Shown here piece by piece: positions 20,410-36,256 of a stretch of DNA of 64,000 nt. A program made the position numbers and the translations under genes. Under the pieces are notes generated by a model. It ran no database searches. It was given only the letters and a program-made list of their open reading frames with translations, and was not told where the DNA came from. How positions within the stretch are numbered: position 1 is the stretch's first letter; the number at the start of each line of letters is the position of its first letter. The DNA is from Bacillus marasmi (lineage in GTDB: Bacteria; Bacillota; Bacilli; Bacillales; Cytobacillaceae), in the NCBI RefSeq assembly GCF_902168435.1, contig NZ_LR656182.1:1-64000 (forward strand). Direction: 5' to 3'.

Positions 20410-20497
20410 TATCATCACCCCTAACTCTATTTTAGCATTATGTGCTCGGCCTAGAACAAAAAAGTGAGGTCGGATTTGATTGAATTTCGCATAAAAT

Positions 20498-21018: not shown

Positions 21019-21317
21019 TTTATTTACCCCTTTGTAAAAAGTTTTATTTTCCCCATCCCATTGTTCTAACAAATCACATCACCAAAGGCTTTAATACTAT
21101 ATTCACCAAAAACGTTTATGTTGTATAACAGTTTACTAATTGTTGTTTATTATATAACACGTTCGCGAAACTGACCACAATTTTTTGAAAATTTTTTTAA
21201 AAAAATAAAAATAATTTTTCTGTGAGCAAAAATGAAGCTTTTTTAACTGTATTTTGAGAAAATTAAGTCATCCTCGTGATAAAATAATAAGAGTAGTAAC
21301 ATTGGGGAGTGAACACA

Positions 21318-22235
21318 TTGAAAACTATTACAATTGAAGATTTAGCTCAACGGTTTTCATTGAAGGTGTTAGCAGGGGAAAGTCATTTAGGCCGAAAAGT
21401 TACCAAAACTCAATCGCACAGACCTGGTTTAGAATTCATCGGTTTCTTCGACTTTTTTCCGATGGAACAAGTGCAAATTTTGGGTAAAAATGAAATTACA
21501 TATTTATACACTTTGACAAAGGAAGAACGCCGCATGCGCGTTAGCAATATCGTCAAATATCATCCACCATGCTTTATCGTTACTGACCATCAAGAGGATC
21601 GCCTTTTTTATATGAGGGAATTTTGTGAGAAGGAAGGAATTCCTTTACTTTTTACTTGTGAACCTACTTATGAATTCGCTTCCAAACTTGATGCCTATTT
21701 AGTTAAAGCGCTCGCACCAGAAATTGCGATTCATGGGGTTTGTCTCAATGTGTTTGGGATGGGGATTTTACTGCGCGGTAAATCAGGCATCGGCAAAAGT
21801 GAAACCGCTCACACGCTAATAGGACGAGGCCATCGCCTTGTCGCTGACGATATCGTTGTCTTAAAAAAGCTGAGTCCGCAAACATTACTTGGAACGCATA
21901 ACGGAACAAATCGCGAATTTCTTGCACTGCGCAGCATCGGCTTATTAAACGTCGCACGGATGTACGGACGCAAGGCCTATCAAGAGGAAACGCGTATCGC
22001 CCTCGATATCGAGCTAACCACTTGGGAAAAAAATAGCTTAAATAACGACCTTGAAGTAGAAGCAAAAATGTCGGAATACATGGGTGTTCAAATTCCCCGC
22101 ATCGAAATCCAGCTCCAGGCTGGACGTGACGTCGTTGGCTTAATCGAAGCTGCCGCCAATAATTTTTATTTAAAGCAGCAGGGCTACAGCGCAGCTGATG
22201 AATTTATGAAACGCCTTGAATCAGAAGAAAATTAA
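21318..22235 (+). CDS. hprK: HPr kinase/phosphorylase-like protein
   Basis: This protein of about 305 residues has the HprK N-terminal domain (RPGLEFIGFFDFFP, QILGKNE) and a C-terminal kinase domain with Walker A RGKSGIGKSETAH and GHRLVADDIV. HprK phosphorylates Ser46 of HPr for carbon catabolite control. The family signature around the GLGIINV block reads ALRSIGLLNVARMYG here. The gene is also not followed by lgt as in B. subtilis, so this may be a second, diverged paralogue. TTG 21318 has GGGGAG eight bases before; GTG 21309 is too close to it. A terminator follows at 22253. Confidence 0.85.
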   Translation: MKTITIEDLAQRFSLKVLAGESHLGRKVTKTQSHRPGLEFIGFFDFFPMEQVQILGKNEITYLYTLTKEERRMRVSNIVKYHPPCFIVTDHQEDRLFYMREFCEKEGIPLLFTCEPTYEFASKLDAYLVKALAPEIAIHGVCLNVFGMGILLRGKSGIGKSETAHTLIGRGHRLVADDIVVLKKLSPQTLLGTHNGTNREFLALRSIGLLNVARMYGRKAYQEETRIALDIELTTWEKNSLNNDLEVEAKMSEYMGVQIPRIEIQLQAGRDVVGLIEAAANNFYLKQQGYSAADEFMKRLESEEN

Positions 22236-22252
22236 ATTTGTGAAATATGGAA

Positions 22253-22279
22253 GGCAGCTGTCCCAGAGGGGCAGCTGCC
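22253..22279 (+). terminator. terminator-like hairpin after hprK
   Basis: GGCAGCTG / CAGCTGCC forms an 8-bp stem with an 11-base loop. The following T-run is weak (TAATTATT). Confidence 0.6.
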
Positions 22280-22313
22280 TAATTATTACGTTATTCATCA
22301 TGTCTAAACTCCT

Positions 22314-22910
22314 TTAATAGGCGGGCACTGTCTTTTTTAATTTTATTTTCGTCCGAATCGCCGACCACATGGCAACAAGCAGTCCGCCGCCACTATCGGC
22401 AATCAAATCAATCATCGTATCGCGATTGCCACCGCCTTGTAGCGTTTGATTGAAAAATTCATCAGAACTAAATTCGTATATTTCCCAAACTACCCCGCCT
22501 AATACTGCGAAGGCTATGACAAAAATAAATACAAACCAAGGGGAAATATGCTTGTCAGCTTCGCGATGGATGAGGCGTTCATACAAAGCAACCCCGGCAA
22601 AACCAAGAATCGCCCCGCTAATTAAATGCATGAATGTATCCCACCAGCCATTGCCATACCAGCCTAAAATCGAGCCCAAATATTGCGAGCCAACCAAGAA
22701 TATCAAGTAGGAAACAATTAATGGCATATTAAATTTAAGCTTTGTGAAAAAAGCCAATAAAAGTGGTATGGCACCGCAACCAACCCCACTAGCTGCAACA
22801 ACAGCCTTGAACGATTCATCCCTCATAAAATAAAAAATAGCAACCGATCCCATAAATAAAACGTATAGCAAGCAAAGTCCGATAACGAGCTTTCGATTGT
22901 GATTCATCAT
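22314..22910 (-). CDS. polytopic membrane protein, YjdF/DUF2238-like
   Basis: This 198-residue protein has about six membrane segments. The conserved polar pieces WWDTFMHLISGAILGFAG, VVWEIYEFSSDEFF and NRDTMIDLIADSGGGL (Asp/Glu/His-rich turns) resemble the DUF2238/YjdF family. The role is unknown. RBS AGGTGG lies just before two consecutive ATGs (22910 and 22907); either may be used. Confidence 0.75.
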   Translation of the reverse strand: MMNHNRKLVIGLCLLYVLFMGSVAIFYFMRDESFKAVVAASGVGCGAIPLLLAFFTKLKFNMPLIVSYLIFLVGSQYLGSILGWYGNGWWDTFMHLISGAILGFAGVALYERLIHREADKHISPWFVFIFVIAFAVLGGVVWEIYEFSSDEFFNQTLQGGGNRDTMIDLIADSGGGLLVAMWSAIRTKIKLKKTVPAY

Positions 22911-23164
22911 GTCACCACCTATTTTTATTGTCGTCATAATAACCGTATTTTTCCGCTTATCTATATTTTTATTATAAGATGTGGTGTGGCTTTCCGCTCT
23001 TATTAACTTATTATTGGTTGAAAATCGACAAACTCTCATTACTATTTTTAATAAAAGCTTGAAGGATAAGGCTTTACTTGAGTTTAATCAAACCTTTGAT
23101 TGAAACGGGTTTCCCGGGAAATTAGTCGAAATAAGTGGGAGAGTTGTAGAATTTGAAAAATAAA

Positions 23165-23213
23165 GATAGAGCCAGGCTCCACCATAATCAACGGAATGCG
23201 TCTGGCTCTATTT
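23165..23213 (-). terminator. terminator of the DUF4015 gene
   Basis: An 11-bp stem AATAGAGCCAG / CTGGCTCTATT with a long loop is followed on the minus strand by TTTATTTTTC. Confidence 0.8.
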
Positions 23214-23243
23214 AAGTTGGGTGGTGGTGCTGGATTTCCAGCT

Positions 23244-24338
23244 TCATTTAAATGGCGTGTAATCCACCCCCGGAGTGTACACGTTTTTACTATTCCAAAG
23301 TAAATATTCGTGAATTCCCTGGTCATGAAGTGCGCGAATCTGGTCCTCAACTTCCTTCTTCCCATAAATCAGGTAATTTCCTTTACCAAGCCACGGGGCG
23401 GTGAAATCCTGCAGCCAAGGTCGCGATTTCGGCGGATGTTTTAATTTGCTTAATTTTTCCTTTTCAACGCGCGCGTATTCATGAACAAGCTTGTAAGGCT
23501 CAAGATCCGGCTTTTGGAGCCCGAAAATCCCGGACCAATGACTAGGATAAATCATCGACGAAATAATATCGATGTTCTTGGAGATTTTTAGGAAGTCTTG
23601 ACCAATTCCTGGTGCCTTTTCAATCACTGTCGTATTTCCAAACGTATCAACGGACATTTTGACATCATAAGGCTCTAATCGTTTTTTTGCCATCTTCACA
23701 AATTCTGTCACGGCGTCAATTCTATGCTGACCTTGGTTTCCTGTGCTGTGCGGTTTATAGTATGTAAGTTCACTCTCAAACTGCTCAAATTTTTCTGGAA
23801 ACCTCACATAATCGAATTGAATCTCCTTGAAGCCTAGCTTCGCTGCTTCAATCGCAATGCCAATATTATAATCCCAAACCTCCTTCAGAAAGGGGTTAGT
23901 AAATGAATCACCGCGACTATTTTTCCAAAGGTTATCCCCCTTTTTAAACGAATAACTCGGCTCCTTTTGCGACAGCACGCTGTCTTTAAAAACAACAATC
24001 CGCGCAATCGGATAAATATTATGCTTTTCTAAGGTTTTCATAAGCTCTTCTGGATTGGTAATATACGGATGGCTATTCGCATGATAGGCTGATATTTTCG
24101 AAGGCTCAAAGGTAATATGGCCCCAATCATCCTTAATATCAATCACCATCGCATTTAATTCAGTATCCTTAACGAGATTAACCAATTGAGTAAACTTTGG
24201 CCCTTTTGTGTTGCTGGCTTGAACGTAAATCCCTCTAATTGGCTCCTCCGATGTTGCCTCGTTTTGGGCATGTATCTCCTTTGGAACCATTGCTGTAAAA
24301 ATAAAAATGGCAAATAGAAACCATATCTTTTTTCTCAC
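23244..24338 (-). CDS. secreted putative glycoside hydrolase (DUF4015)
   Basis: This 364-residue protein has a signal peptide (residues 1-24, ending EIHAQ). The DUF4015 TIM-barrel glycosidase-like domain includes RGIYVQASNTKGPKF, LNAMVIDIKDDWGHI, GFKEIQFDYVRFPE (probable catalytic Asp), VKMSVDTFGNT and the late PWLQDFTAPWLGKGN block. The family is predicted to hydrolyse polysaccharides; the substrate is unknown. The GTG start at 24338 has GGAGAG eight bases upstream; an in-frame upstream ATG lacks a signal peptide at its end. Upstream lies the 52-bp repeat array. Confidence 0.85.
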   Translation of the reverse strand: MRKKIWFLFAIFIFTAMVPKEIHAQNEATSEEPIRGIYVQASNTKGPKFTQLVNLVKDTELNAMVIDIKDDWGHITFEPSKISAYHANSHPYITNPEELMKTLEKHNIYPIARIVVFKDSVLSQKEPSYSFKKGDNLWKNSRGDSFTNPFLKEVWDYNIGIAIEAAKLGFKEIQFDYVRFPEKFEQFESELTYYKPHSTGNQGQHRIDAVTEFVKMAKKRLEPYDVKMSVDTFGNTTVIEKAPGIGQDFLKISKNIDIISSMIYPSHWSGIFGLQKPDLEPYKLVHEYARVEKEKLSKLKHPPKSRPWLQDFTAPWLGKGNYLIYGKKEVEDQIRALHDQGIHEYLLWNSKNVYTPGVDYTPFK

Positions 24339-24454
24339 AAAACACACTCTCCAGTAGTATATATTTCCAATTATCATGTGCAAAAGAGCGCGGGTTCATT
24401 CGTGGAAGTGGAGAAGTTTGCGATTTTTTTTGGGGGGATGGTTGATTCTCAAAA

Positions 24455-25095
24455 GGATCCCTTATGAGCCAAAACACGAGGGATAATTATAGAAAATGGC
24501 TCATAGAAGGCCTCTATGAACCAAAACAAAAGCAAAAATCAAACCAAGTGTCCCAAAGAGAGTCTCTATGAGCCAAAACACGAGGGATAATTATAGAAAA
24601 TGGCTCATAGAAGGCCTCTATGAACCAAAACAAATGCAAAAATCAAACCAAGTGTCCCAAAGAGAGTCTCTATGAGCCAAAACACGAGGGATAATTATAG
24701 AAAATGGCTCATAGAAGACCTCTATGAGCCAAAACAAAAGCAATAATCAAACCAAGTGTCCCAAAGAGAGTCTCTATGAGCCAAAACTCGGGGGAAAATT
24801 ATAGAAAATGGCTCATAGAAGGACTCTATGAGCCAAAACAAAAGCAAAAATCAAACCAAGTGTCCCATAGAGAGTCTCTATGAGCCAAAACACGAGGGAT
24901 AATTATAGAAAATGGCTCATAGAAAGCCTCTATGAGCCAAAACAAAAGCAAAAATCAAACCAAGTGTCCCATAGAGAGTCTCTATGAGCCAAAACTCGGG
25001 GGAAAATTATAGAAAATGGCTCATAGAAGGCCTCTATGAGCCAAATCTCGAGAGATAATTATAGAAAATGGCACATAGAAAGCCCGTGAGCCAAA
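24455..25095. repeat. tandem dyad array, 104-bp unit made of two 52-bp halves
   Basis: The motif TATGAGCCAA recurs at 24463, 24567, 24671, 24775, 24879 and 24983, exactly 104 bp apart. Halfway between, at 24515 and so on, lies a diverged partner TATGAACCAA/TATGAGCCAA, so the basic period is 52 bp and there are about 12 units. Junctions form hairpins: TGGCTCATAGA, loop AGGCC, TCTATGAGCCA. The alternating spacers are near-identical between units. The array fills an intergenic space between two minus-strand genes. Confidence 0.95.
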
Positions 25096-25184
25096 ACAAT
25101 AGAAACCATATGCCAAAATCCACTTAAAGCTGTCCCCACCTCTACAGTAGGAAAAGTATACTAGTAATTGATTGTTGAGTTTAC

Positions 25185-26093
25185 TTATATAAAATAAACA
25201 TGCTTTCCATAGCCCATTTTTTTGAAATGTTTATTCAAAATTCTCATAACCCTCTTCCTTCCACCTTCCACCCCACACCACTCATAAACCAACTTAGTCG
25301 TGATTTTCAACTCTGGAAATAGCAAGCGAATTTCCTCCACACATCGCAAAACCGCAGTTCCCAATTCTTCCTCAAACCCGCAATTATTACAAACCAAGTT
25401 CCGTCCTCCCGAAGACACGAAAAAGGACCCGCAACGTCCGCAGCAAAACCCCTTTCTCATGCCATTAAAATCATATGAAAATGGCAATTCAAAGGGAGGA
25501 TTCGCGATATGACGCTCTAAAAGAAATTGTGCTATGCGGTGGTGGCCATCATTTAGGACGGAAGGCAGCCCACTCAAATTGTGTAAATATTGATTTAATT
25601 GCGGTAGATAAATAATGGGTTTGTCTTGTGGAGCATCGTATAAAAAGAATTCAGGATGATTAAAGATGACATTTCCATCAATCGATAAATGGAAGCCGTG
25701 TTTTTGGAGTAATTGGGAAAGAAGAGTCTTACATCGGCTCAATTGGTGGAGGGGGTTTTTGATTTTTTTCCTGGTGGTTATATTGCGAAATTCACCATCT
25801 TCATAATAGTAATTGCCTTGATAGTACTTTACTTCGCAAACAACAATACATTTTTGGGTAATGATTAATGTGTCGATTTGAAATTTATTGCCGTCATAGT
25901 CGAGGAACAAGTCTCTCAGAATTAAGAATTTTTCAGCCAGCCAAGCCGAGGATTCATCAAAACGCAATTCACCTTCGTAGCCTTTTTGGAGGATAGATAG
26001 GCGATGCTTTGCATCGTCTGGTATTTCCATTCGCAAATTCAAAAGTTTAAGGACCGTTAATTCAGTACGTTCAACACGTTCGTTTAATAGCAT
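25185..26093 (-). CDS. NERD domain protein with zinc ribbon
   Basis: This 302-residue protein has an N-terminal nuclease-related NERD domain (about 35-150; KFQIDTLIITQKCIVVCEVKYYQGNY). A linker and a C-terminal zinc-ribbon (CCGRCGSFF...CNNCGFEE, CxxC pairs at about 218-245) follow, with a basic tail that may bind DNA (VEGGRKRVMRILNKHFKKMG). NERD proteins are predicted nucleases or DNA-processing factors; this one keeps the D...EVK core. RBS AAGGAAG precedes ATG 26093. It is monocistronic. Confidence 0.85.
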   Translation of the reverse strand: MLLNERVERTELTVLKLLNLRMEIPDDAKHRLSILQKGYEGELRFDESSAWLAEKFLILRDLFLDYDGNKFQIDTLIITQKCIVVCEVKYYQGNYYYEDGEFRNITTRKKIKNPLHQLSRCKTLLSQLLQKHGFHLSIDGNVIFNHPEFFLYDAPQDKPIIYLPQLNQYLHNLSGLPSVLNDGHHRIAQFLLERHIANPPFELPFSYDFNGMRKGFCCGRCGSFFVSSGGRNLVCNNCGFEEELGTAVLRCVEEIRLLFPELKITTKLVYEWCGVEGGRKRVMRILNKHFKKMGYGKHVYFI

Positions 26094-26277
26094 ATTCCAC
26101 TTCCTTTCTGGGATTCTATCTTTATTTTAAAGAAAAAAAGAAAGATAGGTGTACGAGTATTGTGTGAATTGTGTGACAACAAACAACTCATGGCCATCAG
26201 CCCTGACCGACATTTCTTTCCAATCTTAGCCATAGAATGTTATAATCGTATGTGAGATTTTGATGGGAGGTAGTAAC

Positions 26278-27288
26278 TTGGCGATTTTAGTGACAGGCGG
26301 AGCTGGCTATATCGGAAGCCACACTTGTGTGGAGCTGCTTAACGCTGATTATGAAATAATAGTAGTAGATAATTTAGATAATAGTAAGCCAGAGGCGTTA
26401 AAGCGGGTTAAGGAACTAACTGGCAAGGAATTCAAGTTCTACGAAACGGACTTGCTCGATCGTGAGGGGCTTGAAAAGGTATTTGAGGAAAACCAAATCG
26501 AAGCCGTCATCCACTTTGCGGGCTTGAAGGCGGTAGGTGAGTCTGTGGCACTTCCGCTCAAATACTATCATAACAATATCACGGGAACATTAGTCCTTTG
26601 TGAAGTAATGAGCAAATATAACGTAAAGAATCTCGTATTTAGCTCGTCGGCGACAGTATACGGAATGCCTGAAGAAGTGCCGATTTCTGAAAGTTTTCCA
26701 TTAGGAGCAACAAATCCTTACGGCCGCACGAAGCTAATGATTGAGGAGATCTTGCGCGATTTGTATGTTTCCGACAATGACTGGAGTATCGCTTTATTGC
26801 GCTATTTCAATCCAATTGGTGCGCATGAAAGTGGCCGAATTGGCGAGGATCCGAACGGAATTCCAAACAATCTAATGCCTTTCATTACTCAAGTGGCGGT
26901 AGGAAAGCTACAGGAGCTTAAGGTATTTGGCAGTGATTACAATACAGTTGATGGAACAGGGGTTAGAGATTATATTCACGTTGTTGACCTTGCTAAAGGC
27001 CACCTTAAAGCCCTTGAGAAAATCGTAACAAACAAAGGCGCTGAAAGCTATAATCTAGGAACTGGTCGTGGCTATAGCGTACTTGAAGTCGTAAAAGCAT
27101 TCGAAAAAGCATCTGGAAAAACGATTCCATATGCAATCGTCGACCGCCGCCCTGGCGATGTTGCCGAGTGTTACGCGAACCCGGAAAAGGCGAAGCAAGA
27201 GTTGGGTTGGAGCGCGGAAAAGGGAATCGAGGAAATGTGTGTGGATTCCTGGAGATGGCAATCAAACAACCTAAATGGCTATGAATAA
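26278..27288 (+). CDS. galE: UDP-glucose 4-epimerase
   Basis: This 336-residue extended SDR epimerase has the NAD-binding [10 protein letters not shown] at the extreme N-terminus, the catalytic Ser/Thr in FSSSATVYG, YxxxK in NPYGRTKLM, and the C-terminal [15 protein letters not shown]. It interconverts UDP-glucose and UDP-galactose for cell-surface glycans or galactose use. The TTG start at 26278 has GGGAGG seven bases before. Earlier in-frame codons would put residues before the Rossmann strand and lack an RBS. It is followed by a terminator at 27294 and has no gal operon partners. Confidence 0.93.
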
Positions 27289-27293
27289 TTAGT

Positions 27294-27326
27294 AAAGGAG
27301 GGTCAATTTGAGCCCTCCTTTTTTCT
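27294..27326 (+). terminator. galE terminator
   Basis: AAAGGAGGG pairs with CCCTCCTTT around a nine-base loop, followed by a T-run. Confidence 0.9.
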
Positions 27327-27371
27327 TTTAAAAATAAAGCAGACCGCCGCGCCGGATAAAAAACTAGTCAG

Positions 27372-27578
27372 TTATGATAGGCGGTTCCGGTTTCGATGTT
27401 GAGTTGAAGTAGAGTCAAACTTCTGCACAAAATTACAACGTTGACAGGCACGGCCCAGCGTAACTTTTGATTTGGTGTCTCGATAATAAACCTCATTAAA
27501 GCCGCATATTGAACATTCTACCTCGTGAATCGCTTCCCGTGGACCAAATAACGCATCAAGCAGTAGCTCAAAATACAT
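27372..27578 (-). CDS. small zinc-ribbon-like protein, 68 residues
   Basis: Two CxxC pairs (ECSICGF and ACQRCNF), 22 residues apart, suggest a zinc ribbon after an N-terminal helix MYFELLLDALFG. The C-terminus is basic (RNRNRLS). ATG 27578 follows GGGGGATTTTG. No known function; it lies convergent with galE. Confidence 0.6.
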   Translation of the reverse strand: MYFELLLDALFGPREAIHEVECSICGFNEVYYRDTKSKVTLGRACQRCNFVQKFDSTSTQHRNRNRLS

Positions 27579-27809
27579 CAAAATCCCCCCATCGTAACCC
27601 AAAAACGAATTAATATTTTTATATCAAAAATTACTAGGAGAAACAGTCGGAATTTGGATAATTTTTCAAAAAGAAGTTCGACGTTATTTTTACCCTAGGC
27701 ATTGCAATTCGTACATGTTGTTATACCCATACTCTTGTCACGATGTTGTCAAATTCGTAATAGTCATAAAATTTTCACCGGATATTTTATTGAAATAATG
27801 TATTGGTGA

Positions 27810-27824
27810 TGATAATCTTTATCA
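27810..27824 (+). promoter_or_regulatory. Fur box upstream of feoA
   Basis: TGATAATCTTTATCA fits the 7-1-7 Fur consensus (TGATAAT-N-ATTATCA) with one mismatch. It is 46 bases before the feoA start. Iron repression is inferred. Confidence 0.75.
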
Positions 27825-27869
27825 ATAAGAGAAGCTTTTGAAAACAGATTATAAAAGTAGGTGAATAAT

Positions 27870-28085
27870 ATGATTTTATCAAAAGCAAAGATCGGCCAAA
27901 CAGTTGTGGTTAAAAGCGTTGAAGGAAAAGACAAGATGAAGAAATTCCTATTTTCCTTAGGCTGCTATGAAGGCGAAGAAATCACCCTTATTTCAATTCT
28001 AGCAGGTAATTATGTTGTGAATATTAAAGATAGCCGCTACGCACTGGATGCAAATATGGCAAAATCAATCCTGATTCAAGCATAA
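27870..28085 (+). CDS. feoA: FeoA family ferrous iron transport accessory protein
   Basis: This 71-residue SH3-like FeoA protein has the typical KIGQTVVVKSVEGKDKMKKF start and a late DSRYALDANMAKSILI block. FeoA proteins bind FeoB and are needed for Fe(II) uptake. ATG 27870 has AGTAGGTG six bases before. A Fur box lies upstream and a terminator hairpin downstream, before a second Fur box that serves feoB. The two genes can therefore be transcribed separately. Confidence 0.88.
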   Translation: MILSKAKIGQTVVVKSVEGKDKMKKFLFSLGCYEGEEITLISILAGNYVVNIKDSRYALDANMAKSILIQA

Positions 28086-28154
28086 TTCTGCAATTCAATG
28101 AGACTTTAAAGCTAATGTTAAGATGAACATGACTCTGTAATCTACCAAACCAAT

Positions 28155-28187
28155 AATATGCTATGAATCGTAGCATATTTTTATTTT
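28155..28187 (+). terminator. terminator between feoA and feoB
   Basis: AATATGCTA / TAGCATATT with a seven-base loop is followed by TTTATTTTC. Confidence 0.8.
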
Positions 28188-28197
28188 CAACATAAAT

Positions 28198-28217
28198 GAT
28201 AATGATTTTCAATATCA
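28198..28217 (+). promoter_or_regulatory. Fur box upstream of feoB
   Basis: TGATAATGATTTTCAATATC matches the 19-bp Fur consensus closely and lies about 42 bases before feoB, separately from the box before feoA. Confidence 0.8.
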
Positions 28218-28259
28218 ACAAAACAACATCAAAATAGTAGAAATGAGGAGAGGCGCATC

Positions 28260-30206
28260 ATGAAAATCGCTTTGGCGGGCAATCCGAATTGCGGGAAAAC
28301 GACGGTATTCAATGCCATTACAGGAAGATCAGAAGCGGTAGGAAACTGGTCTGGTGTTACGGTATCAGCAAAAGAAGCAGGACTGAAGAAAAAGTACAAT
28401 CCCGAAGGTCGCGAAATCACTATCGTTGATCTACCAGGGGCATACTCGATTTCTCCTTTTACTGGAGAGGAAGCGATTACCTCTGATTTCATTAAGGAAA
28501 AGGATCCAGATGTCATTATAAATATTGTAGATGGAGCAAATGTAAGCCGAAGCTTATTTTTCACAACGCAGCTCCTTGAGTTAGGGGTTCCGGTTGTTAT
28601 TGCACTAAATAAAAATGACATCGTTTCCAAACGAGGAGATAAAATTGATGTTGCGGCGTTAAGCAGTGCCTTAAGTTGTCCTGTCATTCCTGTTGCCGCT
28701 ACGCTAGAGGAAGGCTTACCGGAATTACTAGCGAGTGCAATTGAACATGGAGAAGCGCAGAGCTTTATCGCACCGCCGTCATTAGCGAGTATTGATACAG
28801 ATACAGCCAGACAAAAGCTGGTTGATCAAATTGTCAATAAATGTCTTGTCAAAGTGCGTGTAGCGAACCAAATCACTCTTTCGGATAAAATAGACCGCAT
28901 TGTTGCTCACAAATGGTTGGGATTACCGATTTTCTTTGGAATTATGTGGGCTGTGTTCTCTCTATCGATTGAAGGAGTCGGCGGATATTTTTCAGCTTAC
29001 TTAAACGAGACACTATTTGGAGAAATCGTTCCGAATGCTGCGAACAGCTTTTTTGAAAACCTAGGTGTTGACCCGTTATTGCAGGCGGTTATCGTTGATG
29101 GGGCAATCGGTGGGGCTGGCGCTGTCATTGGCTTCTTACCGCTCATCATGGTGTTGTTTTTCTGCTTATCGCTATTAGAGGATTCTGGTTACATGGCGAG
29201 GGTGGCCGTGGTCATGGATCGATTTTTCAAAAAGATTGGCCTTTCTGGAAAATCAATTATCCCAATGATCGTTGGTTCTGGCTGCGGAATTCCGGGTGTT
29301 ATGGCAACAAGAACAATTGAAGATATTAATGAAAAAAGAATGACAACAATTCTGACGCCATTTGTTCCGTGTGGGGCGAAGCTACCAATCATCGCGCTAT
29401 TCGCAGCTGTATTTTTCCCTGAAAATACTTGGGTTGGCCCAAGCATGTATATTTTAGCGATTGTGATGATTTTACTAGGCGGATTGTTATTAAAGAAAAT
29501 CTTTGTTTGGGATAGTACTTCATCGTTCATTATGGAGCTGCCAGAATACAAAATCCCAAGCTTAAAAAATGCACTCATTCAAATGTTTGATAAAGCAAAA
29601 GCGTTCATTGTTAAAGCAACAACAATTATCCTTGTTTGCAACACATTAGTTTGGTTCGCATCCACTTATAGCTGGAGCTTGAAGCCGGTTGAAGACCAAA
29701 GCTTAAGTATTCTAGCTTCGATGGGCTCGACCATTGCACCATTGTTAATCCCACTTGGATTTGTTGGCTGGCAATTGGCTGCAGCAGCAATAACTGGATT
29801 CATTGCGAAGGAGAACGTTGTCGCAACGTTCGCTGTCTTGTTAGTTGCATCTGAAGAAGCGTTACACATGCCTGGTGGCGTTATCACTGAGTTTTTCACA
29901 CCAGTTACCGCATTAGCATATCTTGCTTTCAATTTATTTACACCACCTTGCTTCGCGGCAATCGGTGCGATGAACTCGGAAATGGGCTCGAAGAAATGGC
30001 TATTTAGAGGCTTGGCGTTCCAATTTGGTGTTGGCTATATGGTTGCGTTGATTATTTCCCAGGTTGGTTCACTGATTGTGTACGGCACTCCTAGTATTGG
30101 GTTCGGGCCTGCAATCGTGATTACCGTCCTAATGGCCTTATTCCTTGTTTTCATTATCAAACGTGCTGATTTCAAACGAACCCAGTTAGGAGTTGATTTA
30201 TCGTGA
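28260..30206 (+). CDS. feoB: ferrous iron transporter FeoB
   Basis: This 648-residue protein has an N-terminal G domain with G1 GNPNCGKTT, G3 DLPGAYS and G4 NKND. The helical GDI region follows, then a membrane part with two Gate motifs (GSGCGIPGVMATRTI and PFVPCGAKLPI). It imports Fe(II) across the cytoplasmic membrane. The switch region reads NWSGVTV, while NWPGVTV is the usual form. RBS AGGAGAGG precedes ATG 28260. A GTG-started Cys-rich gene overlaps its stop by four bases. Confidence 0.95.
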   Translation: MKIALAGNPNCGKTTVFNAITGRSEAVGNWSGVTVSAKEAGLKKKYNPEGREITIVDLPGAYSISPFTGEEAITSDFIKEKDPDVIINIVDGANVSRSLFFTTQLLELGVPVVIALNKNDIVSKRGDKIDVAALSSALSCPVIPVAATLEEGLPELLASAIEHGEAQSFIAPPSLASIDTDTARQKLVDQIVNKCLVKVRVANQITLSDKIDRIVAHKWLGLPIFFGIMWAVFSLSIEGVGGYFSAYLNETLFGEIVPNAANSFFENLGVDPLLQAVIVDGAIGGAGAVIGFLPLIMVLFFCLSLLEDSGYMARVAVVMDRFFKKIGLSGKSIIPMIVGSGCGIPGVMATRTIEDINEKRMTTILTPFVPCGAKLPIIALFAAVFFPENTWVGPSMYILAIVMILLGGLLLKKIFVWDSTSSFIMELPEYKIPSLKNALIQMFDKAKAFIVKATTIILVCNTLVWFASTYSWSLKPVEDQSLSILASMGSTIAPLLIPLGFVGWQLAAAAITGFIAKENVVATFAVLLVASEEALHMPGGVITEFFTPVTALAYLAFNLFTPPCFAAIGAMNSEMGSKKWLFRGLAFQFGVGYMVALIISQVGSLIVYGTPSIGFGPAIVITVLMALFLVFIIKRADFKRTQLGVDLS

Positions 30207-30343
30207 CAGCAACAATCGTCGTAGGTGTCATTTTTGCCGGAATTTTAATCTTTGCGACAAGAAAAGTCGTCTCAGATGCGAAAAATAAGAAATGTAATTG
30301 TTCTAGCTCAGGAAGCTGCTCAAGCAAAACGAAATGCAGTTAA
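30203..30343 (+). CDS. FeoB-associated Cys-rich membrane protein
   Basis: GTG 30203 overlaps the feoB stop (GTGA). The 46-residue product has one membrane helix (TIVVGVIFAGILIFA) followed by a short Cys/Ser tail (CNCSSSGSCSSKTKC) with four cysteines. This matches the small FeoB-associated Cys-rich family found directly after feoB in Firmicutes. It may bind iron or assist FeoB; the role is not proven. Confidence 0.85.
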   Translation: MTATIVVGVIFAGILIFATRKVVSDAKNKKCNCSSSGSCSSKTKCS

Positions 30344-30366
30344 TAATTAAATAGAAGAAACTGGTA

Positions 30367-30400
30367 AAAAGCAGGAGGCGTTCAGCGTCTCCTGCTTTTT
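30367..30400 (+). terminator. terminator of the feoB operon
   Basis: AAGCAGGAG pairs with CTCCTGCTT around an 11-base loop, followed by TTT. The 52-bp array begins 40 bases later. Confidence 0.85.
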
Positions 30401-30438
30401 GTATTATTTTTGATTAATATTTTGTGGGCATTAAAGGT

Positions 30439-31560
30439 CTCAATGAAACAAATCATGAATGAAAAAGGCAAGAAATGATTCATGAAAGACCTCAATGAAA
30501 CAAATCATGATTGAATTATGCAAGAAGTGTTTCATGAAAGGTCTCAATGAAACAAACCTTGGTTGAAAAAGGCAAGAAGTGTTTCATGGTAGGTCTCAAT
30601 GAAACAAACCTTGGTTGAAAAAGGCAAGAAGTGTTTCATGAAAGGTCACCATGAAATATATCATGATTGAATTAAGTAAGAAGTGTCTAATGAAAGGCTC
30701 ATGAGTTCAAAGGGAGATGGGGATTTAAGAGAAATGAACTCATGAAAGGCTCATGAGTTCAAAAGGAGATGAGGATTCAAGAGAAATGAACTCATGAAGG
30801 GCTCATGAGTTCAAAGGGAGATGGGGATTTAAGAGAAATGAACTCATGAAAGGCTCATGAGTTCAAAAGGAGATGAGGATTCAAGAGAAATGAACTCATG
30901 AAGGGCTCATGAGTTCAAAGGGAGATGGGGATTTAAGAGAAATGAACTCATGAAAGGCTCATGAGTTCAAAAGGAGACGGGGATTCAAGAGAAATGAACT
31001 CATGAAAGGCTCATGAGTTCAAAAGGGGACGATGGTTCTTGCAAAATGAACTCATAAAAGGCTCATGAGTTCAAAATGAGATGATGAATCAAGAGAAATG
31101 AACTCATGAAAGGCTCATGAGTTCAAAAGGAGATGGGGATTCAAGAGAAATGAACTCATGAAGGGCTCATGAGTTCAAAAAGAGATGATGAATCAAGAGA
31201 AATGAACTCATGAAAGGCTCATGAGTTCAAAAGGAGATGGGGATTCAAGAGAAATGAACTCATGAAGGGCTCATGAGTTCAAAAGGGGACGATGGTTCTT
31301 GCAAAATGAACTCATGAAAGGCTCATGAGTTCAAAAGGAGATGATGAATCAAGAGAAATGAACTCATGAAGGGCTCATGAGTTCAAAAGGAGATTAGAGT
31401 TCATGCAAAATGAACTCATGGCAAGCCCATACGGACAGAACCCAAGAAAAAAACCCGAGAAGTGTCCGTATGAAGAGCCCATACGGACAGAACCAAAGAA
31501 AAATTCACGAAAAATGTCCGTATAAAGAGCTAATACGGACATTTAAAGCAAGTACCTCAT
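30439..31560. repeat. continuous 52-bp-register dyad array with three arm types
   Basis: Block A (30439-30690) has about five units with arms TGTTTCATGA / TCAATGAAACA. Block B (30697-31420) has 14 units with arms TGAACTCATGA / TCATGAGTTCA, starting at 30697 + 52n with no indel for n = 0 to 13. Block C (31425-31545) has three units with arms TGTCCGTAT / ATACGGACA. Block C starts exactly at the next 52-bp step, and blocks A and B are within two bases of the same phase. Hairpin loops are AAGGT, AAGGC and GAAGAGCCC. Spacers of about 25 bp are purine-rich. No ORF or promoter is evident. Confidence 0.95.
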
Positions 31561-31612
31561 AAAATAAAAAATGTTCAACGCAAAACACAAATCCCATAAA
31601 CAAATTCTCTCT

Positions 31613-32227
31613 TCAAACTCTCCCACGCATCGCCTTCAAGTCCGCAACAGCAAAATCTATAATTCTCCCATAAATAGACAGTATTGATTGCCCGTAGGTC
31701 GTTCCTGGTACGGCCCATTTGCCATTTAGTGCTGTCCAGGTTTTCGCGGTGCCCCGTGAGACTAAATGGAAGCGGGGGTCGACGACAGGGTAGGCGGTTG
31801 GTAATGACTCAGAACTTGCATAGGCAAATAAATGCTGAAGGTGGGCGAGGACACCATCTTCGGGTGTGGCGAACGATGCGCCACGTACGGGAGTTCCGGT
31901 TGCCCCGATTCCAGCGAAATTATTTTGGGTGGATCGCACATCGCCGCCGAAACGGAAATACCCAGTTTCGAGCAAGGCTTGGGAAAAAGCAATATCACCC
32001 CGAATTCCATAATAATCTCCGTATAAAACGTATAATCCACCCAATTCAACCGCACTCGGATTAATTGATTTTGCGTATTTATTAAGATGCTCAGGAGAAA
32101 TTAATGTCGGACCTAATATTGAAATAGCAGTATAGTTGGAGAAGTTTCCACCACTGCTACCACCAGCACCACCGCCCTTGCCACCAGTGTCTCCGCTCCC
32201 ATCCTGACTTGGACTAAAATAAACCAT
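31613..32227 (-). CDS. glucosaminidase-domain protein (GH73-like)
   Basis: This 204-residue protein has a Gly/Ser-rich N-terminal linker (GGKGGGAGGSSGG) and then a glucosaminidase fold, with the catalytic Glu region in FSQALLETGYFRFGG and NNFAGIGATG. It probably cleaves peptidoglycan N-acetylglucosaminyl bonds. There is no signal peptide, which fits Bacillus homologues that act during sporulation or are exported otherwise, but this is unresolved. ATG 32227 has GGAGG eight bases before. Confidence 0.85.
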   Translation of the reverse strand: MVYFSPSQDGSGDTGGKGGGAGGSSGGNFSNYTAISILGPTLISPEHLNKYAKSINPSAVELGGLYVLYGDYYGIRGDIAFSQALLETGYFRFGGDVRSTQNNFAGIGATGTPVRGASFATPEDGVLAHLQHLFAYASSESLPTAYPVVDPRFHLVSRGTAKTWTALNGKWAVPGTTYGQSILSIYGRIIDFAVADLKAMRGRV

Positions 32228-32545
32228 CAGCATCACCTCCATTTATTAGCTTCAAGTAAATATATGCGGCGCGTTATCAGATTAATTTTTCGAAAAGGGA
32301 AAATATTTGAGATAGGATTGTCATTATTAAAATAAAATAGAACAAACTGCACTAATTCAAATAGTAAAAGCCATCAAACTTGCCATCCAAAAATTTAACA
32401 ACCTGCGCAGCTCAAACATGCCAAATAGAACCATCAAAGGGTGCCCATTCCAGAAATCATAAAAATCCGTTAAATCACTAGTTCATTTTGAAATTGCACT
32501 CGTATGATATCATAAAACCATTTTTCCATACGATGAGGTGTCGTA
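32228..32545. other. intergenic region, nothing notable
   Basis: This 318-bp AT-rich gap lies between the divergent glucosaminidase and VTT genes. It must hold promoters for both, but I see no clear operator, hairpin or ORF. Confidence 0.4.
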
Positions 32546-33232
32546 ATGACAATGCGAATGAAAGTAGTCCTTGTTATACTAGTGGTCCCGCTGTTGTTGT
32601 TCAGTTTAAATTCGGAAATTACGGAGATCATCACCGTCATGCTGTCAGGGGATCATTCTGCATTGGCCGATCTTTCGAAGGGGAGTCTTCTTCTGATACT
32701 CCTGTGCACGTTGTTGTTGATGACAATTCAAAACTTATTTACGATTATTCCGCTTATATTGTTAATATCCGTTAATATCTCATTATTTGGATTTACGGGT
32801 GGATATATTTGGAGTTGGATTGTGAGCATCGCGGGAGCAGTCGTTTCTTTTTTACTGACACGATTTTGGTTTCAGGACTTTTTTGGGAAATTTGTGGATG
32901 ACAAATGGGAGCAAAAAATTGATGAGAACGGATTTTGGTTTGTTTTTATCGGAAGAATCATGCCGTTTATGCCAACCAGTGTTGTTAATATTGCTGCGGG
33001 GATTAGTTCGGTTCGCTTTATGAAGTTCTTCTATGCGACTGCAATCGGAAATTTCATATATTTCTTTTTCCTATCAGCAATCTCCCTTGGAATCCTATCC
33101 ATCCCTTGGGAGAACGGGATTTATCTTGCGCTCGCCTTGTGCACGCTGATTATTTATATGCTTATCAGGAGAAGAAAAAAGAAAAGCTTGTTAATCGAGT
33201 CCTCCTCTGAATATCAAACCGAGGACTTCTAA
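32546..33232 (+). CDS. TVP38/TMEM64 (VTT domain) membrane protein
   Basis: This 228-residue protein has about six membrane segments. The VTT signature is present as FGFTGGYIWSWIVSIAGAVV followed by GRIMPFMPTSVVNIAAGISS. DedA/VTT proteins move lipids or small molecules across membranes; the substrate here is unknown. RBS GAGGTG lies five bases before ATG 32546. A shared bidirectional terminator separates it from the convergent germination gene. Confidence 0.88.
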   Translation: MTMRMKVVLVILVVPLLLFSLNSEITEIITVMLSGDHSALADLSKGSLLLILLCTLLLMTIQNLFTIIPLILLISVNISLFGFTGGYIWSWIVSIAGAVVSFLLTRFWFQDFFGKFVDDKWEQKIDENGFWFVFIGRIMPFMPTSVVNIAAGISSVRFMKFFYATAIGNFIYFFFLSAISLGILSIPWENGIYLALALCTLIIYMLIRRRKKKSLLIESSSEYQTEDF

Positions 33233-33234
33233 AC

Positions 33235-33260
33235 AAAGAGGGTGAATCTAACCCTCTTTT
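33235..33260. terminator. bidirectional terminator
   Basis: AAAGAGGGT / ACCCTCTTT with a seven-base loop lies between two convergent genes. The stop codon of the minus-strand gene is inside the hairpin. Confidence 0.8.
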
Positions 33261-34348
33261 CCAATCATTCCGCGTAATTTTCCCACAACTAGCAGCAAAA
33301 CTGGGAATAGCAGTCCATATACAGCTGCAAAGGGCGTCCAAATCGAGCCAATCACCGAGATGAAAAAAGAGGAATTGGGATAGGCAATTAACGAAAGCAC
33401 AATCATCATCATACCAAATGGAAAATAAAGAATTCTGGAGTGCTTCAGCTTTAAAGCCTGCGCAAAACAAACTGTAGTGGCATAAAAACAAATAATTAAT
33501 TTGAAAAATATCGTAATAATCCACAATATTGCCATGATTGCTTCAATGCGCTCTAGTATATTAGCAATATTTATTTTTGTCGCTAATATAAAGGTTGGGT
33601 ATATGACTCTACCAGTCATTTCTGAGCCCATAACCAATATGCTAATAAAGGAAATGATAATCAGGATAAGGCCGCCAAATAAATAGCCGTAATAAAAGGC
33701 TTTTGTTGTTTTGTTTGTATCTTTCACGTAAGGGTAAATCATCAAAAACACGACGAGCTCCATACAAGGGGTGCCAATGTAAGGCAGCGTCCCATTAATA
33801 ATTGGCTTAAAACCACCTTCAAGCATTGGTTGAATATTTTCAATTTTTGCTTGAGGAAAAATTAATATGATCAGTAAGCAAAAAAAGAAAATAGTAATTG
33901 GAAAAATAATTTCAGATGTCCTCGAAAAAGTTTCCAAGCCATAATACAGTCCAAAAATGACCACCAATATGAAAAGGATTTCAATGAACTGGATTGGCGT
34001 ATCATCCAATACATGAGTTACTAAAAAATCGCCAATGTTACGGAGCACAAGTGAAGAGATGAGAAAAAAATAGGCAGAGAACATTAAGGAAATACAGAGT
34101 CCAAGCCATTTGCCGAGGATTTTCTCACTGTATTCAGCAAGGTTCATTTTTGGATAAGACTTTGCTAAAGAATTGTATATTACGATTAAAATAAAGCCAA
34201 GGCCAACCCCGATAATCGCTGCTAACCACGCATCTTGCTTCGCTTTGGCGGCTAGCGCAGAGGGCAATAATAGGATTGAACTTCCAATTACATACATTGT
34301 TACTAATACGGAGAATTGAACGTTTGAGATTTTCCCGTTTTCTAGCAT
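33248..34348 (-). CDS. GerAB-type spore germination permease, solo
   Basis: This 366-residue protein has ten predicted membrane helices and fits the endospore germination permease family (GerAB, an APC-superfamily branch). It has the typical start ISNVQFSVLVTMYVIGSSIL with LPSALA, the central TPCMELVVFLMIYPY, and TGRVIYPTF. GerAB subunits bind the germinant in the spore inner membrane and normally work with GerAA and GerAC. Neither gene is beside it, so it may pair with subunits elsewhere. RBS AAGGGG precedes ATG 34348. It supports a spore-forming host. Confidence 0.9.
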   Translation of the reverse strand: MLENGKISNVQFSVLVTMYVIGSSILLLPSALAAKAKQDAWLAAIIGVGLGFILIVIYNSLAKSYPKMNLAEYSEKILGKWLGLCISLMFSAYFFLISSLVLRNIGDFLVTHVLDDTPIQFIEILFILVVIFGLYYGLETFSRTSEIIFPITIFFFCLLIILIFPQAKIENIQPMLEGGFKPIINGTLPYIGTPCMELVVFLMIYPYVKDTNKTTKAFYYGYLFGGLILIIISFISILVMGSEMTGRVIYPTFILATKINIANILERIEAIMAILWIITIFFKLIICFYATTVCFAQALKLKHSRILYFPFGMMMIVLSLIAYPNSSFFISVIGSIWTPFAAVYGLLFPVLLLVVGKLRGMIGKEG

Positions 34349-34446
34349 AAAGAACCCCTTAGCAGCACGGCAGTGTGATTATGTTATTTTTCTTCAAAAA
34401 ATAAATAAATATCCCTACATTTGAAAAATATTCCACTCAATCAAAC

Positions 34447-34481
34447 AAAAAAAGAGAGGAATCAGCGCTGATTACCCTCTT
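34447..34481 (-). terminator. terminator of the DUF5655 gene
   Basis: On the minus strand GAAGAGGG-TAATCA-GCGC-TGATT-CCTCTC is followed by a long T-run. Confidence 0.8.
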
Positions 34482-34497
34482 CATTAATGGTTAGTAA

Positions 34498-34905
34498 TTA
34501 TGAAATTGCTGTTACTTTTCGTGTGCGTATTAATGAAAACGTATAAGCCTCGCACATCCAGGTAAAAACCTCTTTATCTAACTCAGCTTCACTCTCAATG
34601 ATGACATGGTGGGTAAAGCGACCGGGATATGGTTCAACAATCTCTGTGAATCGTTTGTTCTTTAGACGACGTCCCACGCTAAAGGTCAGAACGATACTGT
34701 TTGGCGGTCGTTTTGAGCCGGACGGCGGATACCAGAGCCAGGCAAATTTCGCTTTTGTGCCAAACGAGATTTCGGTTTTGTGAACTTCCACTGTTGCAGG
34801 TCCAATTGATGAAATCATGCGTTCTAATGCTTGGAACAAAGAGAAATGATCATTATGATTAGAAAAGAAAGCTCGGACTTCTTCTGTATAATCAGGATCA
34901 GTCAT
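34498..34905 (-). CDS. DUF5655 domain protein
   Basis: This 135-residue soluble protein resembles the DUF5655 family: an N-terminal helical FSLFQALERMISSIGPATVE, the strand KTEISFGTKAKFAWLWYPP, and the closing HHVIIESEAELDKEVFTWM block. The function is unknown. ATG 34905 lies just after GGTGGAGAG; an upstream ATG at 34932 has no RBS. Confidence 0.7.
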   Translation of the reverse strand: MTDPDYTEEVRAFFSNHNDHFSLFQALERMISSIGPATVEVHKTEISFGTKAKFAWLWYPPSGSKRPPNSIVLTFSVGRRLKNKRFTEIVEPYPGRFTHHVIIESEAELDKEVFTWMCEAYTFSLIRTRKVTAIS

Positions 34906-35043
34906 GTCTCTCCACCTCTCTATTGATTTCATTTTTAAATGATTCTTGCAACTTTATCCTAACTCTATTCTACCACTTAAATATTCTTTCACTATACTTT
35001 TTGTAAAATCTTGATTGTTGCTTACGACTTTCAGGCGCGATGC

Positions 35044-35607
35044 TTATGGGAAAATTACTCCAATTATTTCGTCCATGGTCATTCCGCTTTGTACTTCATA
35101 CATTCCTGGTTTAAGACCGTTTGCTAAACCGCGACGATCCACCTCTTGGGTGAATTCGAGTGCATTAGGAATGATTTTTGATTGTACGAGCGCATTGCCG
35201 ACATCGATACTGGTCATCCCAGAAGCAACGAAAATGACGGTTCGGTATACAATCTTTTCTTCTGGTTGAGTTTCGGTTTTTGTTTTAGGCTCTTCTTTTT
35301 GTTTGTCTTTAGCTTTGGTTGATTTTTCACTAGCCGTTTTTGCTGCTTTTTCTGCATTGTTAGCCGCTTTTTCAGCTTTGTTCGCTTTCTTTTCGGCTGC
35401 TTCTACTGCAGCAACTTGAGCATCCCAGTCTTTCTCTGTTTTCACAACATAGCCTTCTGCAACTAGCGCAGCTTTCATTTCTTTTTCTGATAGCTTTGTT
35501 TTCGGGTTCGCTGCTGCATCATTTGGGAAAAGGTAGTATACTGCTGTGATTAAGCATGCAGCAATAAAAATACCAGCAGCAATGCTTTGCATTGTTTTAG
35601 CTGTCAT
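35044..35607 (-). CDS. membrane-anchored MltG/YceG-like accessory protein
   Basis: This 187-residue protein has an N-terminal membrane helix (about 8-27) and an Ala/Lys/Glu-rich coiled coil (about 65-110). A C-terminal domain (GMTSIDVGNALVQSKIIPN...GLKPGMYEVQSGM) resembles the LysM-like part of endolytic transglycosylase MltG. The catalytic transglycosylase domain is absent, so it is not an active MltG. It overlaps the upstream 35597 gene by 11 bases (same operon) and may bind peptidoglycan. Confidence 0.7.
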   Translation of the reverse strand: MTAKTMQSIAAGIFIAACLITAVYYLFPNDAAANPKTKLSEKEMKAALVAEGYVVKTEKDWDAQVAAVEAAEKKANKAEKAANNAEKAAKTASEKSTKAKDKQKEEPKTKTETQPEEKIVYRTVIFVASGMTSIDVGNALVQSKIIPNALEFTQEVDRRGLANGLKPGMYEVQSGMTMDEIIGVIFP

Positions 35608-35971
35608 GTTCAGCCTTGCCCCTTTCTGTCTTCGGCTTGATGTAAGGTGCTAGCTTCTGTTCAACATCCTCAGCAGTTAATTCATATTTACCGGCAATGC
35701 TTTCATTCGAATAACCGCGCCGATTCATGTCAATCATTTCCTTAAGATGGGTACGTTCCTCGGTATAGCCTGCTTCATGTGCTGTAATTTCTGCGTCCAA
35801 CTCAAGAAAGCGCACCTGCTCTTGCAGCTTATTTATTTCATCGGTTAACGAAAATGTGATGTGATCAATTTGCTGTTGATAGTCCTTGGATGACTGCTTA
35901 GTGTTATTAATCGACAAAATGAACAGTATAATTGCAGCTAGGAATAAAATGGCTAATGTCCACTCCATCAT
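35597..35971 (-). CDS. membrane-anchored coiled-coil/HTH-like protein (DUF6115 type)
   Basis: This 124-residue protein has an N-terminal membrane helix (4-21), a coiled coil (30-75) and a C-terminal helix-turn-helix-like segment (DMNRRGYSNESIAGKYELTA). The layout resembles DUF6115 proteins such as the SwrB group, but this gene is not near sigD, so no role is assigned. It overlaps the following MltG-like gene by 11 bases. Confidence 0.65.
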   Translation of the reverse strand: MMEWTLAILFLAAIILFILSINNTKQSSKDYQQQIDHITFSLTDEINKLQEQVRFLELDAEITAHEAGYTEERTHLKEMIDMNRRGYSNESIAGKYELTAEDVEQKLAPYIKPKTERGKAEHDS

Positions 35972-36256
35972 ATTTGCTCATCCTCCATATAGTTCAATTT
36001 TTTTACATTGTCCTATTATACATGGATTATGATTACATTTGGATTACAATTCGATAAAATTATACAAAACGCGACAAAAGTCCTGATTTGATAGTAAGTT
36101 ATGGAAAACATTTAGGGCAAGGAGTCAAATGGTGGGTATGTTTATCTGTGAGAGTGGACCACCACCACACGAACAACTTCTCTGAATAAAACATAGCCAA
36201 GCTGAATATGTATAGTTTAATAGAATGAAAAATTTCAGAGGGTGGAGGGCGAGCGA

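What the first reader, a model, noticed from the sequence alone, without database searches (positions are those of the whole stretch)
30439..31560. A continuous 52-bp-register dyad array whose arm sequence changes in blocks
About 22 units keep an exact 52-bp step. The 14 central units start at 30697 + 52n without a single indel, and the next block starts at 31425, the next step. Arm sequences switch from TGTTTCATGA to TGAACTCATGA to TGTCCGTAT while loop (AAGGT/AAGGC/GAAGAGCCC) and period stay fixed. Each arm type is homogenised within its block, yet both arms of each hairpin match. 52 bp is close to five helical turns, so all dyads would face the same side of the helix. This suggests an ordered protein-binding platform, a DNA-structure element, or an unknown copying mechanism that spreads arm sequences. 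Period, arms and register are seen; the role is inferred.
Basis: seen in the sequence. Interest (0 to 1): 0.8.

Follow-up and report, generated by a model that had tools for sequence, protein, structure and literature searches.

The report
Helix-phased, replication-oriented 52-bp repeat arrays
This is one of many non-coding arrays of 52-base repeats in this Bacillus-type genome; such repeats were already published but unexplained, and the arrays examined here mostly carry A/T patches one DNA turn apart and point away from the replication origin, which suggests a DNA-bending or DNA-wrapping element.

Summary
The array is real: 14 central units without an indel, a third block in exact register, and one 1-bp slip at the first border. 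It belongs to a published but unexplained kind, the 52-nt tandem repeats of Bacillus (Subirana & Messeguer 2021). The own genome has at least 21 such places; 4 of 5 genus genomes and, under strict limits, 22 of 193 family genomes hold units (own included).

New here: (1) arms differ between blocks, arrays and species, yet both arms change together. (2) A/T patches recur every 10.4 bp, five per unit: the fifth harmonic is the largest in 46 of 70 arrays and in 16 of 27 published units of other bacilli. This explains 52 bp as five helical turns. (3) The purine-rich strand runs origin to terminus in 55 of 57 arrays, against 145 of 226 background intergenic segments. (4) Arrays favour gene 3' ends; five sites are kept between two species while units are homogenised.

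Most likely: a phased, curved DNA platform wrapped by a protein (gyrase or a nucleoid protein), working like E. coli BIME-2. Binding and function are inferred. Rivals: neutral satellite, specific binding array, head-on terminators, RNA. The SpoIIIE-site idea failed.

The parts
30437..30696 (+). Block A: five 52-bp units, arms mostly TGTTTCATG/AATGAAACA (4 dyads found, 7-8 of 9 pairs)
30697..31424 (+). Block B: 14 units of 52 bp without indel, arms TGAACTCAT/ATGAGTTCA, the commonest arm pair in the own arrays read (85 units in 9 arrays)
31425..31560 (+). Block C: about 2.3 units, arms TGTCCGTAT/ATACGGACA; near-identical arms occur in two other own arrays (L021, L023)
24463..25045 (+). Second array of the same kind, 52/104-bp period, arms TGGCTCATA/TATGAGCCA; both flanking genes on the - strand; an orthologous array lies at the same site in the same orientation in G004
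30364..30402 (+). Ordinary intrinsic-terminator-like hairpin between the feo genes and the array
28260..30206 (+). Upstream gene, FeoB-type ferrous iron transporter (named from recall; no family search run)
31613..32242 (-). Convergent downstream gene, 209 aa (glucosaminidase-like by eye; no family search run)

Best explanation
The array is a non-coding satellite whose unit length is set by DNA structure. Each 52-bp unit carries five A/T-rich patches one helical turn apart, a central dyad and purine-rich spacers (shown). The patches make the DNA curve or bend to one side, unit after unit (predicted). A protein that wraps DNA therefore finds many equal seats in register; DNA gyrase is the first candidate, a nucleoid protein of the HU or Lrp type the second (inferred). 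Arrays sit behind gene 3' ends and between convergent genes, where positive supercoils collect, and would act as supercoil sinks or nucleoid anchors, as BIME-2 arrays may do in E. coli (inferred). Unequal crossing-over or slippage homogenises units in blocks (supported). The dyad arms either fix the position of the bound protein or are kept symmetric by hairpin-templated repair (open). The near-constant orientation relative to replication means that the platform, or the process that builds it, reads fork direction (shown as a bias, cause inferred).
For: A/T fifth harmonic: mean normalised power 3.24 in 70 arrays with at least 3 units (next highest of harmonics 1-13: 1.43), largest in 46 of 70, phase coherence 0.98 relative to the dyad; in the 56 arrays of complete genomes alone 3.49, largest in 37, and in 14 own arrays 2.23, largest in 9. 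Background: 8199 windows of 52 nt give 1.13, largest in 8.1%. Other sequences: all 27 units of the published table, 50-54 nt, average 3.00 against a shuffled mean of 1.02, sd 0.19; largest in 16 of 27. G041, another family: 3.9-5.4 in 4 of 4 units. The 18 published 52-nt units have dyads of other spans, better than 20 shuffles in 11 of 18, so the period is not simply set by the hairpin. Wedge-model curvature above column shuffles in 55 of 70 arrays (parameters recalled). Steps between neighbouring units: 408 at 52, 46 at 50, 51, 53 or 54 (unit finder allows drift of 2). Convergent 18 and divergent 3 of 57 rows; background 29 and 49 of 196 (p 1e-4). Purine-rich strand origin to terminus in 55 of 57 arrays versus 145 of 226 segments. 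Gyrase sites of E. coli carry phased 10-bp G/C variation over about 130 bp, and BIME-2 are enriched in them (PMC6379681, abstract passage and passages).
Against: No binding or function was measured. Many arrays may share descent, so phase coherence within the family is partly inherited. With arms masked the fifth harmonic falls to 1.87, and with arms and loop masked to 1.54, where the fourth harmonic (1.66) is higher, so the spacer alone is only weakly phased. Eleven of 27 published units do not have the fifth harmonic as the largest. The main array's predicted curvature is only mildly above its shuffles, end-to-end ratio 0.685 versus 0.794, sd 0.137. The E. coli gyrase period is 10.75 bp, not 10.4. 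Gyrase or a general nucleoid protein does not by itself explain polarity or genome-specific arms. At the strict limit 171 of 193 family genomes show no match.
Confidence: 0.41

Rival explanations
1. Neutral satellite: arrays arise and persist by replication slippage and unequal crossing-over; arm symmetry is kept by hairpin-templated (quasi-palindrome) repair, which is strand-biased at the fork, and the purine strand follows leading-strand mutation bias. No function.
For: Within-array homogeneity and divergence between orthologues; higher-order 104-bp repeats; patchy distribution between relatives; an insertion sequence inside an array in two genomes; a G-T over A-C excess of the size a strand-biased C-to-T mutation could give.
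Against: Arms stay more alike than spacers between arrays of one genome in 7 of 8 genomes compared (G031 0.72 versus 0.40, G004 0.67 versus 0.32, G000 only 0.41 versus 0.35; the exception is G182, 0.34 versus 0.46), which independent drift does not predict. A neutral process gives no reason for a helical phase in units of other bacilli. Purine skew is above background, 0.600 versus 0.522 on average.
Confidence: 0.27
2. Specific binding array: a dimeric regulator or chromosome-organising protein binds the dyad arms; its specificity differs between species, and arms co-evolve with it.
For: Both arms change together (93.7% of cells paired versus 63.4% in shuffles, 23 units pre-selected for pairing; in a less selected set, units with at least 5 of 9 pairs, 4203 of 4923 cells are Watson-Crick). 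Common arm types recur in several arrays of one genome and differ between genomes. TG/CA ends are conserved and CAAAAC occurs 140 times on the origin-to-terminus strand against 14 in column shuffles.
Against: Several arm types coexist in one genome and even in one array. No candidate protein was sought. In G000 arms are only slightly more alike than spacers between arrays.
Confidence: 0.12
3. Arrays of one-way transcription terminators facing head-on transcription: on the strand opposite to replication each hairpin is followed by a T-rich tail, so the array stops antisense or convergent transcripts that would collide with forks.
For: Terminator scan: 11 of 12 hits in 30000-31800 are array units read on the - strand; shuffles give 1.1 in all. 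In 59 array rows framed by replication, T of 8 after the stem is 3.87 head-on and 1.56 co-directional; head-on is higher in 47, equal in 2, lower in 10. Convergent contexts are common.
Against: Stems hold only 3.45 G-C pairs of 9. A hairpin in the head-on transcript would tolerate A-C changes on the origin-to-terminus strand, but G-T is commoner, 79 versus 45 events, p 0.003. Long rows of terminators are hard to justify, and the period is not explained.
Confidence: 0.1
4. Small-RNA source or RNA sponge, as proposed in the literature, read in fork direction.
For: Published RNA-seq reads match such repeats in B. coagulans (PMC8625621, parts 1 and 2 of 3 read). In replication-framed arrays G-T exceeds A-C, 131 versus 71 cells and 79 versus 45 events, which a G-U-tolerant RNA in fork direction would also give.
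Against: The excess is under twofold, absent in own arrays (13 versus 14 events) and in the less selected set (152 versus 147 cells); transversion mismatches are as common as these. No Rfam match in window 20000-36000. Strand follows replication rather than neighbouring genes.
Confidence: 0.07

Closest known systems
52-nt tandem repeats of Bacillus (Subirana & Messeguer 2021, PMC8161180)
   Same: Constant 52-nt unit, variable sequence, several families in one genome, mostly 4-10 repeats with some longer, non-coding, copy number varies
   Different: Dyads, helical A/T phase and replication polarity were not found in the parts read (abstract, introduction, methods 2.1-2.2, results 3.1-3.4 and part of 3.5, discussion, tables) or by word searches of the main text for palindrom, inverted, strand, orientation, hairpin, replication, helix, helical, curv, purine, periodic, turns. 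The authors do note that short signals and their reverse often occur in one repeat, and suggest a protein polymerising on DNA
BIME-2 / REP arrays of E. coli
   Same: Intergenic arrays of palindromic units; phased G/C bending signals and BIME-2 enrichment in gyrase sites reported (PMC6379681, passages); insertion sequences landing inside them (recalled for BIMEs)
   Different: Other sequence and unit length; REP motif and RAYT transposase not sought; gyrase binding untested here
SpoIIIE recognition sequences (SRS) / FtsK KOPS
   Same: Short purine-rich signals that point from origin to terminus (orientation recalled; octamer from PMC5869595)
   Different: The SRS GAGAAGGG occurs 0 times in 59 array rows; arrays are long and spaced, not single octamers
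CRISPR arrays
   Same: Regular array of palindromic repeats
   Different: Spacers are homogenised copies, not unique; Subirana & Messeguer drew and rejected the same comparison

Membership tests
52-nt Bacillus tandem repeats (Subirana & Messeguer) | Tandem unit of 51-53 nt, at least 4 copies | tested here: met
52-nt Bacillus tandem repeats (Subirana & Messeguer) | Several families of equal length and different sequence in one genome | tested here: met
52-nt Bacillus tandem repeats (Subirana & Messeguer) | Non-coding, intergenic | tested here: met
   for this array; elsewhere, with a few arrays overlapping crude ORFs; no gene annotation was available
52-nt Bacillus tandem repeats (Subirana & Messeguer) | Transcribed (reported for B. 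coagulans) | not testable with these tools
   no RNA-seq at hand
BIME / REP | Array of palindromic units in intergenic DNA | tested here: met
BIME / REP | REP motif and linked RAYT (Y1) transposase | not tested
   no search was run
BIME / REP | Bound by gyrase or IHF | not testable with these tools
   needs Topo-Seq or ChIP
SpoIIIE SRS / KOPS | GAGAAGGG octamer on the origin-to-terminus strand | tested here: not met
   0 in 59 array rows, 0.9 expected from column shuffles
Intrinsic terminator | G+C-rich stem followed by a T tract | tested here: inconclusive
   T-rich tail on the head-on strand but weak stems
Structured RNA (any Rfam family) | Match at the gathering score | tested here: not met
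   0 matches in window 20000-36000
CRISPR | Unique spacers between repeats | tested here: not met
   spacers repeat within arrays; cas genes were not searched

The most novel reading that the evidence does not exclude
A chromosomal element defined by helical phase and fork direction rather than by sequence: any sequence qualifies if it places five A/T patches per 52 bp on one face of the helix and its purine strand along the fork. Arrays of it would be seats for a DNA-wrapping machine, and arm sequence is free to drift as long as both arms agree. This would explain why 52-nt repeats with unrelated sequences recur across bacilli.
Probability: 0.33. Interest if true: 0.82.

Novelty: new member of a known kind. 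Interest (0 to 1): 0.62.

Why it matters
The constant 52-nt length with variable sequence was reported as enigmatic. A helical phase of A/T patches gives a physical reason for the number 52, and the replication polarity gives a second constraint. Both make the open question testable with standard assays (curvature gels, Topo-Seq, orientation swaps). If a wrapping protein is found, bacilli would have a counterpart of BIME-2 gyrase arrays that has spread and been homogenised like eukaryotic satellites.

Tried and rejected
SpoIIIE SRS / KOPS: the loop GAAGGG suggested polar translocase signals; GAGAAGGG is absent from 59 array rows and GAAGGG is in only 15 of 59.

First polarity count: with covariance-model hits, 33 of 33 multi-hit clusters and 22 of 26 single hits pointed origin to terminus (from the 150 rows listed; more matches existed; 8 further clusters on G192 C1 and C3 could not be placed and were left out; genome size stood in for chromosome length). 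I judged this biased, because the model prefers purine-rich flanks and low-scoring opposite arrays appear as single hits: L130 and L133 are full arrays with reversed boxes, L131 and L132 short arrays. I redid it with palindromic, orientation-free arm patterns in G192 and G031 (about 100 rows of 154 and 216 places were listed, and only listed places and earlier loci were read): in 26 arrays of at least 2 units the spacer purine polarity is 26 of 26, but flank A-T is + in 21, about 0 in 1, - in 4, and loop G-C is + in 18, about 0 in 3, - in 5. Only the purine strand is nearly invariant; box and loop are not.

RNA element: no Rfam match; a modest G-T excess at most. An early count with almost no wobble pairs used units pre-selected for Watson-Crick pairing and is not relied on.

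Element of phages or plasmids: no match in either collection; one arm pattern absent from viral contigs.

Literature: searches listed no paper on this element. The authors' earlier paper on tandem repeats in bacteria, asked for by a recalled DOI, is not held, so a mention there of palindromes or polarity cannot be excluded.

Rows dropped: 8 units of one array with even dyad length; own arrays L015, L022 and L023 were not in the sets (L015 because its box and its contig neighbour disagree in strand, L022 and L023 for few units); arrays with under 3 units.

Full report
What is there. Window 30437-31560 holds three blocks of a 52-bp satellite on the + strand between a feoB-type gene with its terminator (+) and a convergent gene (-). 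Lag-52 autocorrelation is 0.817 against a maximum of 0.336 in 1000 shuffles. The 14 central units have no indel; the third block continues the register; the first border has a 1-bp slip on the dyad scale, and sequence likeness across that border is weak. A second array, 24463-25045, has other arms.

A genome-wide family. BLAST finds 25 matches in the own genome, itself included. A covariance model built from 23 units matches all 150 candidates that were scored, a cap, at 21 places. Of 16 own arrays read, 11 consensus units carry CAAAAC after the right arm; the others differ there (L015, L019, L021, L023 and the main window array). Genus: 4 of 5 genomes have matches (own included): 150, 94 in G004, 7, 2 and 0. 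Family: 22 of 193 (own included) at E up to 1e-6 with at most 30 candidates scored per genome, a lower bound, since G031 is not among them and has 27 at E up to 1e-3. In the 24 loci read, some from one array, period 52 is among the two best periods in all. An array in another family of the order (G041) has the same plan with arms TGTCCTTCA. The locus of G030 is largely masked and was not judged.

Arms. In 547 units of 62 arrays (units with at least 5 of 9 pairs) 4203 of 4923 arm cells are Watson-Crick, 152 G-T, 147 A-C. In a stricter set of 584 units in 73 rows there are 145 G-T and 105 A-C cells, 92 and 59 events, p 0.009. Split by frame: 59 rows framed by replication give 79 and 45 events, p 0.003; 14 own arrays framed by their box give 13 and 14. 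A G-U-tolerant RNA in fork direction or a strand-biased C-to-T mutation would both give this; it is far weaker than in known RNA helices (from general knowledge), and transversions are as common. Between arrays of one genome arms are more alike than spacers in 7 of 8 genomes, clearly in G031, G004, G002, G192, G147 and G172, slightly in G000; G182 is the exception. Between genomes arms are as different as spacers (0.33 and 0.32), while TG/CA (0.71) and the flanking box (0.54) stay.

Concerted evolution. Of 8 G004 loci compared with 17 own loci, 5 share flanking DNA at the array, 75-84% identical, in one pair on one side only; the other three have no partner array among the loci fetched. In the five pairs period and orientation are kept. 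Spacers are 0.59-0.91 alike within arrays and 0.45-0.64 between orthologues; arms are 0.92, 0.89, 0.70 and 0.58 alike in four pairs and 0.11 in L019/L029, where different blocks dominate.

Why 52. The A/T profile of the unit has its power in the fifth harmonic, 10.4 bp: 3.24 on average in 70 arrays, largest of 13 in 46, with a phase coherence of 0.98 to the dyad. Background windows give 1.13. In the 27 published consensus units of other bacilli the mean is 3.00 against 1.02, sd 0.19, for shuffles; it is the largest in 16 and not in 11. Some of these share the TG-arm-CA plan and may share descent; their best dyads have other spans and beat 20 shuffles in 11 of 18. Arms and loop carry most of the signal (2.03 alone), the outer spacer less (1.54). 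Predicted curvature exceeds column shuffles in 55 of 70 arrays; for the main array only mildly.

Polarity. dnaA and, in G002 and G031, a dif-like site fix the two replichores. In 57 arrays (59 rows; two arrays are each split by an insertion sequence) the purine-rich strand runs from origin to terminus in 55, against 145 of 226 background intergenic segments, p 2e-7. Exceptions are L131 (0.43) and L146 (0.50). Flank comparison leaves 57 groups, 56 with the bias; that grouping joined L119 and L131 only because both hold the same kind of insertion sequence. Where both genes run against the fork, 5 of 6 array rows still follow replication, background 7 of 15. Most of these arrays were found with the model, which prefers purine-rich flanks, and 15 loci with palindromic arm patterns; the orientation-free subset gives 26 of 26 for the spacer, but only 21 of 26 for the flank box and 18 of 26 for the loop. 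For the window, all 9 DNA matches of 22000-34400 in G002 lie on the strand that makes the window's + strand run origin to terminus; only two lie beside each other, so synteny is loose, but GC skew (+0.044) and gene strand (28182 versus 20375 bp) agree. Both window arrays then follow the rule, one of them against its two neighbouring genes. Replichores of the other own contigs were not determined.

Place. Arrays avoid divergent gene pairs (3 of 57) and favour convergent ones (18 of 57) against 49 and 29 of 196 background segments; in 15 own arrays, framed by the box: 7 convergent, 6 tandem with, 2 tandem against the array, 0 divergent. Genes here are crude ORF calls, and background includes leftovers beside arrays.

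Reading. A DNA-level element fits best: helical phase, predicted curvature, no firm RNA signature, 3'-end location. Gyrase sites of E. coli show phased 10-bp G/C variation over about 130 bp, with 35-52 bp thought to wrap around the GyrA C-terminal domains, and BIME-2 arrays are enriched in them (PMC6379681, passages). The step to gyrase or any other protein in bacilli is inference. Polarity is not explained by gyrase alone.

Known or new. The kind is published (PMC8161180) with the suggestions of nucleoid protein binding or small RNA; this array is a new member. The dyad covariation, the five-turn phase and the polarity were not found in what I could read of that work, and an earlier paper of the authors was not available.

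Noticed in passing
L119 (G182) and L131 (G172), arrays at about 2584-4775 in L119 read origin to terminus and 516-2410 in L131: An insertion sequence with a Mutator-family transposase (PF00872; IS256-type by recall) sits inside a 52-bp array in both genomes, with apparent 8-bp target duplications seen by eye: a possible taste for such arrays.
   Followed up: partly
window 27700-31600: In G004 the segment with the feo genes and the main array is missing; matches to the DNA before and after it lie about 93 bp apart. Gain or loss was not decided.
   Followed up: partly
window 12907-13671: Dense tandem repeats of 36/72/108/144 bp, period a multiple of three, perhaps coding.
   Followed up: no
window 44568-44687: Three copies of a 39-bp repeat with an inner GGGGGCCTGTCCCCC palindrome.
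   Followed up: no
L020 1480-1750: A short 53-bp-period array with other motifs (TACTCAAT) and no CAAAAC box, in the own genome.
   Followed up: no
G192 contig C3: Three single model hits on another contig of G192, perhaps a plasmid or a separate piece.
   Followed up: no
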